DNA from: Thalassovita litoralis
GTDB lineage: Bacteria > Pseudomonadota > Alphaproteobacteria > Rhodobacterales > Rhodobacteraceae
Assembly: GCF_900182725.1 (NCBI RefSeq)
Contig: NZ_FXTO01000026.1
Span: forward strand, 1 to 46,064
DNA: 46,064 bases
Reading direction: 5' to 3'
Shown: one piece after another, positions 1 through 46,064 of the stretch
Layout of the letters: each line of letters begins with the position of its first letter
Position numbering within the stretch: the first letter of the stretch is position 1
Program-made: the position numbers and the translations under genes
Notes under the pieces: model-generated
Told to the model about the DNA's origin: nothing
Databases searched by the model: none
Seen by the model: only the letters and a program-made list of their open reading frames with translations

Positions 1-60
1 AACCCTGCAGATCGACTCGACGCCGTAAACAATGCGCTGATCTTCAATAAAAGCGATCAT
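1..60 (-). CDS. IS3-family transposase OrfB, N-terminal 20 codons (cut by window start)
   Basis: The frame opens with [14 protein letters not shown], identical to the start of the complete OrfB at 21432. It runs off the left edge of the window. The C-terminal part of what is probably the same gene lies at 45556-46064, leaving about 337 bp unseen between the two. Confidence 0.85.
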
Positions 61-398
61 CGCTTCAGTGGGCGGTCGAGTTCCGCCTGCGCAAAATAAG
101 CCGACGCTTTGCGGAGAATTTCATTCGCCTGCCGAAGCTCCCGGACCTCACGTTCCAGGGCCTTGATCCGGTCCCGTTCCTCAGTGGTCACGCCATCGCG
201 CATGCCGCTGTCCTTCTCAGCCTGCTTGACCCATTCGCGCAGGGTCTGGGGAATACAGCCAATCTTGGGTGCAATGGCCGCGATCGCGCCCGCTTGCGTT
301 TCATATGAGCCTTGATGCTCGAACACCATCCGCACCGCACGCGCGCGGACCTCGGGAGAATAGCGATTTGCCATTTTGCTTTTTGTCATAACCATCAT
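57..398 (-). CDS. IS3-family transposase OrfA (intact)
   Basis: This 113-residue protein is the helix-turn-helix DNA-binding subunit of an IS3-family transposase. The N-terminal half is an HTH_Tnp_1-like domain ([14 protein letters not shown], then the [10 protein letters not shown] recognition region). It is followed by a leucine-zipper-like coiled coil ([18 protein letters not shown]) typical of OrfA. Its stop overlaps the orfB start (ATGA, 57-60), the usual arrangement for programmed frameshifting into an OrfAB fusion. Unlike the copy at 21057-21435 it has no internal stop and no 37-bp insert, so this is the version that could make active transposase. Confidence 0.9.
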
Positions 399-441
399 CC
401 TTACTTAAGTTCATGGTCTCCGACAAACTCGGGGCGATTCA

Positions 442-476
442 TAATCCTGTGTATCCAAGTAGACGATCAAGGGCAT
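442..476 (-). pseudogene. Start of an IS-split PIN-like gene (N-terminal 11 codons)
   Basis: On the minus strand an ATG at 476 opens MPLIVYLDTQD and is cut by the IS3 end at 441. With the IS and one TTA duplicate removed, the frame runs straight into the open frame at 45516-44400 (continuing YINLFNEPDD). The rebuilt N-terminus, hydrophobic strand plus LDT, is the classic first motif of PIN-domain nucleases with catalytic Asp8. No strong ribosome-binding site is visible upstream. The gene would be transcribed divergently from the retron operon. The split in coordinates arises only because the window is opened inside the IS. Confidence 0.75.
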
Positions 477-525
477 GGCACAACATATATAGAGCCGACC
501 CTAAGAAAGAAGAGGGTTTCACCAT

Positions 526-43821: not shown

Positions 43822-44147
43822 TGAAGGTCTTCCATATCAAGCAGAACGATACGGCCCCAGCTATCGGATCGGACCTTTTGGACGCGGCTAAAAATGCGGT
43901 TGACCTCACCGGGGCCACCGTGCGCTTCAACATGCGTAGTGAGGGCGGCGAACTGGTGGTGGATAACCAAATCGCAGTTGTGACCAACGCCGCCGCTGGA
44001 GCAGTGCGGTATGATTGGCAACCGGGAAACACAGCCATACCCGGAATCTGCTATGCAGAGTTCGAAGTTACCTACGCCAACGGCAACGTGGAAACATTCC
44101 CAAACTCCAGCAACATCAAGGTCCGTGTTGCGCCAGAAGTGGGGTGA
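43818..44147 (+). CDS. BppU-like phage baseplate upper protein domain
   Basis: A 110-residue protein with the FHIKQNDTAPAIGSDLLDAA start and VDLTGATVRFNM, GAVRYDWQPGNTA, then YAEFEVTYANGNVETFPN. This is the Ig-like domain of the BppU/DUF2479 baseplate family. It overlaps the previous stop by four bases. It is the last phage gene here; 44148-44399 holds GC-rich repeat-like sequence (GTCCGCAGTGCGGGAC, two CGGACGTTCGCTGCA-like words) and no gene. Confidence 0.75.
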   Translation: MMKVFHIKQNDTAPAIGSDLLDAAKNAVDLTGATVRFNMRSEGGELVVDNQIAVVTNAAAGAVRYDWQPGNTAIPGICYAEFEVTYANGNVETFPNSSNIKVRVAPEVG

Positions 44148-44399
44148 CCACGCTGCTGCTCGGCTTCACCGAACCGATCATTCGCGCTTGACTCGAGATT
44201 TAGGTTGGCCAGAGGTCCGCAGTGCGGGACGAAACGGACGTTCGCTGCACCTGAAGAGTTTTCGCTGCAACTGCGATGCAGAGCGAGAGGGAGGGGCGGG
44301 AAGCGGAAGTTCGCTGCAACCACAAACCATTAGACCTCTCAAACGAAAGCTGCCTTTCTATGTGGGTAGTCGCTCGAAGTGAAGCAAGAGCCGAGCTTG

Positions 44400-45516
44400 T
44401 TAACCGATCCGCCCTTTGGATTGGTCTTGGCCCAATTCCTGCAATTGGCTTTCAATTCGGTTCGGTAGGTCAGCAAACCGACCAACCAACTTGCCTTTGA
44501 AGGGTTCGAAATCCCGGAAGGTGTTGGCCATAGCCTTGTCGCAGCGGAACAAATCACATTCGTATGCGTAGCACATCTGCATGAGGTCCATCACATCTGA
44601 GCGTTTGAAGGCATATCCCGGTTTCATAATGCGCGTTAGGTAGTGGTGAAAATGCCCGGCCCGACCTTTCCCAACAACCGCTTCTAGTTTTGTGGTAACT
44701 TTCTCAGGGTCGGGCTCAGGCAGGGTGAATTGCTTGGTCAACCGCCGCGCCTCTTTCTTGTCAAAGCCAACTTCTACGAGCGTAGACCTTGCAGACAGAC
44801 GATCCACGTTCATCTTCTGAATCTCAACCACAACTTCCTGTATCTGGCCTGCAAGTTGCTCTATGTCATCGGTCGGTTTTCCGAAGTACTTGGCTATGAC
44901 GTTGGGATGATCGGCATAATCATAAACGATGCGACTGTATTCCGCAGGGTCGGAGAACCAAGCGTTCATTCGTCGTTCGAATTCGGCATCACTGCACTGC
45001 CCCTTCATGAAGCGTTCCAAGACACGGCTTTCGATTATTTCGTCAGACACCGGAAAACCGGCATAGTCGGATCGTTTGCGACCCCAAGTTGAGCCGTTCT
45101 TGCGGATCAACTCGGTCATTGATGCCTTCCGGCCAAGCTGGCGTCGTTGGCTGCGGTTCAAACCTTCGACTTTTGCCAGTTCATCCACCAGCATCGTATG
45201 CATTTTCCGCTTGAACTGCTTCGCGGTGACGACTTTTTCATCCCGCCCGAACATCCATCGCCCGCCGTTAGGGAACTCCGCGCCCTTCGCAAGGTCAGTG
45301 ATGTAGGGGAATGCGTTGGGACCGCATACATCCTTGATCAACTGCCCACGCTGAACTCGCTCCGGCCTGTTTTCCATATCAGGCTTAGTGATGAACTCCA
45401 TTATGGTGGCGAACGAGAACCCTATAACAATTTCGCCACGATCCCGAAAGCTCAGTAAGTTAGCCAAAACTTGATGGTTCGGGCCGTCATCCGGCTCGTT
45501 AAAAAGGTTAATGTAA
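44400..45516 (-). pseudogene. PIN-like protein gene, main part (split by IS3)
   Basis: The frame from 45516 lacks its first codons, which lie at 476-442 across the window ends. The rebuilt protein is about 382 residues. The N-terminal strand has VYLDTQDYINLF with Asp8. SFATIMEFITKPD supplies Glu51. The C-terminal CDLFRCDKAMANTFRD has the late acidic motif. These three together fit a PIN-like RNase. The middle (about 90-300) is helical with an RSQRRQLGRKAS basic patch and is unfamiliar. As assembled the gene is disrupted by the IS. A role as a toxin-type or defence nuclease is an inference. Confidence 0.75.
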
Positions 45517-46064
45517 TGAATCGCCCCGGTTTCACCGGAGACCTTTAGCTTCATTTTACGCGACCATATCGAGCACGTCGCGTTGTGCATAGAAGTTCTC
45601 TTCGGCTTCGGCTGGCGGGATATTTCCGATGGGCCCAAGCAGGCGGCGGTTGTTGAACCAGTCGACCCATCCGAGCGTGGCCATTTCCAGATCTTGCATG
45701 TTGCGCCATGGACCTTGGCGGTGGACCAGCTCCGTTTTGTAGAGGCCGTTTATGGTTTCAGCGAGGGCGTTGTCATACGAGTCACCGACGCTACCGACCG
45801 ATGGCTCAATGCCAGCTTCGGCCAACCGCTCGGTGTATCGAATGGACAAATATTGCCCACCGCGATCCGAGTGATGAACTAATCCACCCTTCTGGACGGG
45901 CCGTCGATCATGCAGGGCCTGTTCCAGCGCATCGAGAACAAAGTCTGTCTTTGCGGACCGCGAGACCCGCCATCCCACGATGCGATCAGCGAATGTGTCG
46001 ATGACGAAGGCCACATAAACAAAGCCTTGCCACGTGGACACATAGGTAAAATCGCTGACCCAGA
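45517..46064 (-). mobile_element. IS3-family element, right half (cut by the window end)
   Basis: The right terminal repeat starts at 45517 (TGAATCGCCCCGG on the plus strand). The half is nearly identical to the right part of the copy at 21014-22376. Together with 1-441 it makes one IS with TTA duplications on both sides and about 337 bases unseen. Confidence 0.9.
45556..46064 (-). CDS. IS3-family transposase OrfB, C-terminal part (cut by window end)
   Basis: The fragment begins within [14 protein letters not shown] and contains the second and third catalytic positions ([23 protein letters not shown]). It differs from the internal copy at only a few residues. With the first 20 codons at 1-60 it probably belongs to one complete OrfB. 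Confidence 0.88.

What the first reader, a model, noticed from the sequence alone, without database searches (positions are those of the whole stretch)
1..46064. The window appears to be a circular molecule opened inside an IS3 element
The two window ends are opposite halves of the same IS3 element in the same orientation. Both are flanked by TTA. Joining them and deleting the IS plus one TTA fuses MPLIVYLDTQD (476-442) in frame to YINLFNEPDD (45516 down), rebuilding a PIN-like protein with its first catalytic Asp. Two unrelated IS insertions would not give both the matching duplication and an in-frame, motif-bearing gene. The missing IS part (about 337 bp by alignment to 21492-21828) gives a circle near 46.4 kb. 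Alternatives are a tandem duplication or an assembly loop.
Basis: partly seen in the sequence, partly recalled or inferred. Interest (0 to 1): 0.88.

Follow-up and report, generated by a model that had tools for sequence, protein, structure and literature searches.

The report
Integrating DNA element captured as circle
This stretch is a 46-kb mobile element of a probably marine bacterium that sits in a tRNA gene and also seems to exist as a closed ring, cut open by the assembly program inside a small jumping gene; it is a well-preserved example of a known kind of mobile DNA, not a new kind of plasmid.

Summary
Both window ends are halves of one IS3-family copy with the same 3-bp duplication (TAA/TAA), and the interrupted gene runs uninterrupted through the proposed junction in three other genomes. 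The window is a whole contig (C26) of an 81-contig draft. Four contig ends stop at the same IS positions with exact 95-nt overlaps, the mark of an unresolved assembly repeat.

The new result is inside the window. Beside a tyrosine integrase gene, a 20-bp core (34214-34233) equals the 3' end of tRNA-Leu(GAG). Two small contigs end exactly there with exact 95-nt overlaps: C68 (tRNA-Leu, core, integrase arm) and C60 (core, other arm). The core occurs three times in the genome, as attL, attR and attP. Of four junction sets simulated, only attP+attL+attR gives these contig ends.

So this is an integrative element in tRNA-Leu whose ends are also joined: an excised circle (favoured) or head-to-tail copies. 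No plasmid replication or partition gene was seen among 49 ORFs scanned. Read depth and long reads would decide.

The parts
45517..46064 (-). one half of the end IS3-family element (transposase side), stops where the repeat becomes identical to another copy
1..441 (-). other half of the same IS copy; 37 bases shorter than the internal copy; cut inside the ALIL frameshift pseudoknot
45514..45516 (.). target duplication TAA, right flank
442..444 (.). target duplication TAA, left flank
44400..45515 (-). 3' part of the interrupted gene of unknown family (371 aa)
442..476 (-). 5' end of the same gene (MPLIVYLDTQD)
21014..22376 (+). internal copy of the same IS, duplication TCT at 21011-21013 and 22377-22379
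34214..34233 (.). attachment core (attP), identical to the 3' end of tRNA-Leu(GAG) on contig C68 and to the core on C60
34139..34233 (.). exact 95-nt overlap with the end of contig C68 (tRNA-Leu side; attL)
34214..34308 (.). exact 95-nt overlap with the end of contig C60 (attR)
32868..34136 (-). tyrosine integrase (Arm-DNA-bind_3, Phage_int_M, Phage_integrase)
34322..34519 (-). excisionase-like small protein (phrog_66, E 4.6e-5; no Pfam family)
34516..36663 (-). DNA cytosine methyltransferase region (two ORFs)
37396..37746 (-). phage-type HTH regulator
38386..38826 (+). DUF1064 / phage Holliday junction resolvase
38813..39586 (+). DnaD-like phage helicase-loader/replication protein, N-terminal half
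8093..9034 (+). phage terminase small subunit
1055..2231 (+). type VI retron genes: HTH protein 1055-1357 and reverse transcriptase 1344-2231
23119..29439 (+). type I restriction-modification genes (M, S, R)

Best explanation
The window is the circularly permuted sequence of one integrative element of about 46.4 kb, a phage-derived island with defence cargo. In part of the sequenced DNA it is inserted in the 3' end of the tRNA-Leu(GAG) gene, in the order C68 - [34233 down to 1] - IS - [46064 down to 34214] - C60. In another part it is excised as a circle whose ends are joined at the 20-bp core 34214-34233 (attP). Shown: both window ends flank one IS insertion; a 20-bp core lies beside the integrase gene; attL-, attR- and attP-type sequences are all in the assembly. 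Inferred: the integrase, with the excisionase-like protein, swaps strands in the core, and the joined form is a free circle rather than a tandem junction. The window starts and ends inside the IS because the middle of that IS is repeated in the genome and the short-read graph could not be resolved there.
For: One IS insertion: matching TAA; gene uninterrupted in 3 of 3 relatives found. Of the 4 possible pairings of the four broken IS ends (left flanks TTA on C26, CTT on C13; right flanks TTA on C26, AAC on C32) only C26 with C26 matches. Exact 95-nt overlaps at the IS ends (C26/C13 and C26/C32) and at both att ends. Core found 3 times in the genome at up to 2 mismatches, 0 for the reversed control. 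C68 ends with tRNA-Leu and core; C68 and C60 are 3007 and 4340 bp and end exactly at the overlaps. k=95 simulation: attL+attR alone, or attP+attB alone, give no break; attP+attL+attR gives the observed ends. The sequence of C68 before the core, with tRNA-Leu(GAG), is found in 9 of 9 genus genomes, own included. In 2 of 8 relatives the ORF at the end of C60 lies directly behind tRNA-Leu, an empty-site arrangement (scores 267 and 160, shuffled maxima 47 and 46). Excisionase-like ORF across the core from the integrase.
Against: No reads or read depth were available, and attP, attL and attR without attB also fit tandem copies. In the simulation a mixture that includes attB breaks the contigs elsewhere, unless the assembler resolved it. 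6 of 8 genus relatives did not show the C60 ORF beside tRNA-Leu; in 2 of these under 700 bp of contig was left to look at. 0 of 29 scanned loci of integrase relatives had a tRNA within the flanks held (up to 1.5 kb), so this integrase family does not generally use tRNA genes. The assembler and its k are inferred from the overlaps. The excisionase call is weak and without a Pfam match.
Confidence: 0.66

Rival explanations
1. The element is integrated in tRNA-Leu in two or more head-to-tail copies. The attP-like join lies between copies and there is no free circle.
For: The three-junction set attP+attL+attR without attB gives exactly the contig ends seen. Tandem arrays of integrative elements are documented, e.g. 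SGI1, up to six copies (PMC2297512, abstract read).
Against: A 46-kb array needs re-integration or unequal exchange; nothing in the sequence points to a second copy, but identical copies would be invisible here.
Confidence: 0.22
2. An autonomous 46.4-kb plasmid that also integrates now and then.
For: Closed sequence; phage-type DnaD-like protein and Holliday junction resolvase are present.
Against: No plasmid replication-initiator, partition or relaxase family among the ORFs scanned (not every ORF was scanned). By megablast no plasmid record covers 80% of either window part: 0 of 20 and 0 of 132 matching records. The DnaD-like protein matches 4 plasmid records and 45 phage records.
Confidence: 0.05
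3. C26 sits once in the chromosome between C13 and C32, put there by recombination between IS copies, and only its ancestor was a circle.
For: The unresolved IS node links C26 ends with C13 and C32 as well, so the graph alone allows it.
Against: Flanking triplets do not match (TTA with AAC, CTT with TTA). The C13 and C32 copies lie in another repeated sequence and in a MuF_C gene, while C26's flanks are the halves of one other gene. It leaves the C68 and C60 overlaps unexplained unless there is a second copy.
Confidence: 0.05
4. The closure or the attP join is an assembly artefact.
For: The window is a whole draft contig ending in a repeat.
Against: The gene across the ends is continuous in relatives. 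A false 20-bp join would not be expected to make C68 and C60 stop with exact 95-nt overlaps at the two predicted places.
Confidence: 0.02

Closest known systems
Prophage-like / integrative elements of tyrosine integrases in tRNA 3' ends
   Same: Integrase and excisionase-like genes at the attachment site, core identical to a tRNA 3' end, tRNA kept whole at one junction, joined attP.
   Different: No capsid, portal or large terminase and no conjugation genes among the ORFs scanned; large defence cargo; two IS copies.
Salmonella genomic island 1 (integrative mobilizable element)
   Same: Integrates at a gene 3' end; tandem arrays known (PMC2297512 abstract), the main rival reading here.
   Different: No sequence relation was tested; no relaxase seen among the ORFs scanned here.
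Strand-biased circularizing integrative elements (SE)
   Same: Circle found while the empty attB was not detected (PMC9345347 passages).
   Different: SE circles were rare there: attS to gyrB ratio 0.0012 and no attS reads at 229x depth, unlike the assembled attP here. SEs need intA, tfp, intB and srap, and their gene blocks were found in Gammaproteobacteria but not other taxa (PMC10214605 abstract).
IS3 family insertion sequences
   Same: HTH_21/rve transposase, ALIL frameshift pseudoknot, 3-bp duplication.
   Different: Nothing unusual seen.

Membership tests
Tyrosine-integrase integrative element at a tRNA gene | tyrosine integrase gene next to the attachment core | tested here: met
Tyrosine-integrase integrative element at a tRNA gene | core identical to the 3' end of a tRNA gene, present at both junctions | tested here: met
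Tyrosine-integrase integrative element at a tRNA gene | joined attP form exists | tested here: met
   sequence in the contig with graph-consistent breaks; reads not available
Tyrosine-integrase integrative element at a tRNA gene | empty attB in relatives | tested here: inconclusive
   2 of 8 genus relatives have the C60 ORF right behind tRNA-Leu
Tyrosine-integrase integrative element at a tRNA gene | excision by its own integrase | not testable with these tools
   needs experiment
Autonomous plasmid | replication initiator and partition genes | tested here: not met
   none among the ORFs scanned; a phage-type DnaD-like protein is present; not every ORF scanned
Integrative conjugative element | relaxase and type IV secretion genes | tested here: not met
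   none among the ORFs scanned
Complete temperate phage | large terminase, portal, major capsid, tail genes | tested here: not met
   only terminase small subunit and weak head- or tail-like hits among the ORFs scanned
SE element | intA-tfp-intB-srap block | tested here: inconclusive
   one full integrase plus one 210-aa integrase-domain ORF; no models of tfp or srap were searched

The most novel reading that the evidence does not exclude
The element makes circles without leaving an empty attB, by copying out or by replicating the excised circle with its phage-type DnaD-like protein, so that attP is abundant while nearly all chromosomes keep attL and attR.
Probability: 0.1. Interest if true: 0.65.

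Novelty: new member of a known kind. Interest (0 to 1): 0.4.

Why it matters
It shows that contig ends alone, without reads, can reveal both the integrated and the joined form of a mobile element: two pairs of exact k-length overlaps, one at an IS and one at an attachment core. It also gives the boundaries and target of a defence-carrying island (type VI retron and type I restriction-modification) in a probably Thalassovita-like marine host, and makes its mobility directly testable by one PCR across the core.

Tried and rejected
Plasmid reading: searched for replication, partition and mobilisation families and for plasmid records; nothing whole. Linear reading C13-IS-C26-IS-C32: flanks and duplications do not match. 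A 41-nt match between C13 and C32 was first taken for an att repeat; it belongs to a longer sequence repeated in relatives G007 (3 places), G008 and G011, by eye another IS. ARAGORN found no tRNA in C13 or C32 (first 6 kb of each), but a tRNA-Arg lies about 150 bp from the G008 copy, so this is not fully settled. Viral relatives: none for the 446-aa protein or the interrupted gene, one weak relative (36%) for the terminase small subunit. Structure of the interrupted gene's intact relative: pLDDT 49, so no fold search was made. Promoter scan around the core: 0 sigma-70-like sites (shuffle mean 0.7); one terminator-like site, not above the shuffle mean of 1.1. G+C skew showed no clean two-arm pattern by eye. 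My notebook says 28 integrase loci were scanned for tRNAs; recounted, it is 29.

Full report
The window is the whole of contig C26 (46,064 bases) of a draft genome of 81 contigs and 4.11 Mb. A relative of the same genus, G001, has a contig of the same length (8,626 bases) and match place as Thalassovita aquimarina NZ_JADMKU010000039.1, so the host is probably a Thalassovita-like marine bacterium; that naming is an inference.

The ends. On the right, IS sequence runs from 45517 to 46064; on the left from 1 to 441; both on the minus strand, with inverted-repeat ends and the same TAA duplication. The internal copy 21014-22376 has duplication TCT/TCT. Against that copy 337 bases are missing between the ends, and the left half is 37 bases shorter, so a closed length near 46.4 kb. 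Both copies carry the ALIL frameshift pseudoknot, and the left end is cut inside it.

The gene across the ends. The 371-aa right-hand part has one relative among 146 other genomes searched, in 1 of 8 genus relatives, and three in the genome-contig collection, one of which appears to be the same record. All three of the latter read without interruption through the place where the window is split. At DNA level the T. aquimarina contig matches 495-442 and then 45515-44452 with no gap. This is much stronger than the duplication (chance 0.017) or the open frame (0.40 of random positions) alone. The window's part matches no family in the libraries searched, and the four-sequence profile has no PDB relative by sequence. 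By eye the relatives lie in mobile DNA: next to IS110-type transposases and a ParB-like protein in one, next to ParA-, relaxase- and RelE-like proteins in another (names recalled, not searched).

Why the contig stops there. Four contig ends stop at the same two IS positions. C26 left and C13 left share exactly 95 bases; C26 right and C32 left share exactly 95 bases. This is what a de Bruijn assembler with k=95 leaves at a repeat it cannot cross; the assembler and k are inferred. The graph alone allows two pairings. Flanking triplets are TTA (C26 left), CTT (C13 left), TTA (C26 right), AAC (C32): only the C26 pair matches. C13's IS copy lies at the end of another repeated sequence and C32's in a MuF_C gene, so C13-IS-C32 looks like a deletion product between two older copies (inference).

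The attachment core. A comparison of 32000-46064 with the own genome gave two further exact 95-base overlaps with contig ends: C68 (3,007 bases, its end) with 34139-34233, and C60 (4,340 bases, its end) with 34214-34308. They share 20 bases, 34214-34233. C68 carries an ORF that I read as lipB by eye (not searched) and tRNA-Leu(GAG) at 2846-2932, whose last 20 bases are this core. The core occurs exactly three times in the genome with up to two mismatches. It lies 77 bases from the predicted start of the tyrosine integrase gene 32868-34136, with a weakly matched excisionase-like ORF on the other side. The whole window was compared with the own genome in overlapping pieces; among the matches listed, exact 95-base contig-end overlaps appeared only with C13, C32, C60 and C68. 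Not every first-look candidate was scored (14 of 44, 40 of 58, 40 of 66 and 40 of 53 in these calls), so another short overlap could have been missed.

What the overlaps mean. A 20-base repeat cannot by itself cause a branch in a k=95 graph; the recombined sequences must be in the reads. In a simulation with 1-kb arms, attL+attR alone and attP+attB alone gave no break, attP+attL+attR gave breaks exactly as observed, and all four gave breaks at other places. So integrated and joined forms were most likely both in the DNA. The integrated form needs the link 46064 to 1 through the IS, which agrees with the gene and the duplication, an independent line of evidence. Because contigs can be extended beyond simple graph breaks, absence of attB is only weak evidence; free circle and tandem copies both stay open.

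The target in relatives. The C68 sequence with tRNA-Leu(GAG) is present in 9 of 9 genus genomes searched, own included. In 2 of 8 relatives (G007, G005) the ORF found at the end of C60 lies directly behind tRNA-Leu, as expected for an empty site; the other 6 did not show it, and in 2 of those (G001, G008) under 700 bp of contig was left. That ORF matches no Pfam or PHROGs family. In G006 another tyrosine integrase lies about 2 kb behind the same tRNA, so the site may be used more than once. Integrase relatives were found in 206 of 295 family genomes, own included, but 0 of 29 scanned loci had a tRNA in the flanks held: most of these relatives probably use other targets.

What the element carries. 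Phage-type genes (integrase, HTH regulator, cytosine methyltransferase, Holliday junction resolvase, DnaD-like protein, terminase small subunit), a type VI retron pair (PADLOC RT_VI, E 3e-95), a type I restriction-modification set, and mixed regulatory and other genes. By my count 49 distinct window ORFs went to at least one family library. No large terminase, portal or major capsid, no relaxase and no plasmid initiator or partition gene was seen among them; not every small ORF was scanned.

Verdict. The better description is an integrative, phage-derived island of tRNA-Leu with defence genes that is present both integrated and with joined ends. Excised circles are the simplest reading; tandem copies are the main rival. 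Detecting excision from attP and attB reads is established practice (Prophage Tracer, PMC8682789, abstract read), so the kind of thing is known.

Noticed in passing
window 1055-2231: Type VI retron genes (HTH protein and reverse transcriptase, PADLOC RT_VI E 3e-95) close to the IS-interrupted gene; no retron RNA was found by Rfam at gathering score.
   Followed up: partly
window 15906-17843: A 1.9-kb stretch with a LysR regulator and a protein with an ABM domain is 98.1-98.6% identical in each of the 20 plasmid records listed of 132 matching, from several alphaproteobacterial genera, and 97% in a family relative, G010: a recently spread module.
   Followed up: no
window 2436-2554, 9910-9952, 11134-11252, 17816-17934, 20213-20255: Interspersed repeat in five copies, also on contig C7; one copy lies at the end of the 1.9-kb module.
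   Followed up: no
L049 / contig C12 38794-40058: 91% identical to window 41202-42466: another place in the same genome shares this phage-like module.
   Followed up: no
contig C32 6359-7528: A second integrase of the same family (45% identical) in the same genome.
   Followed up: no
L100 (G006): A different tyrosine integrase about 2 kb behind the same tRNA-Leu(GAG): the site may be an integration hotspot.
   Followed up: partly
L015 (contig C13) 1365-4112: MmeI-type restriction-modification gene close to the IS end of C13.
   Followed up: no
window 34275-34298: Terminator-like stem-loop between the excisionase-like gene and the core, not above chance count.
   Followed up: partly
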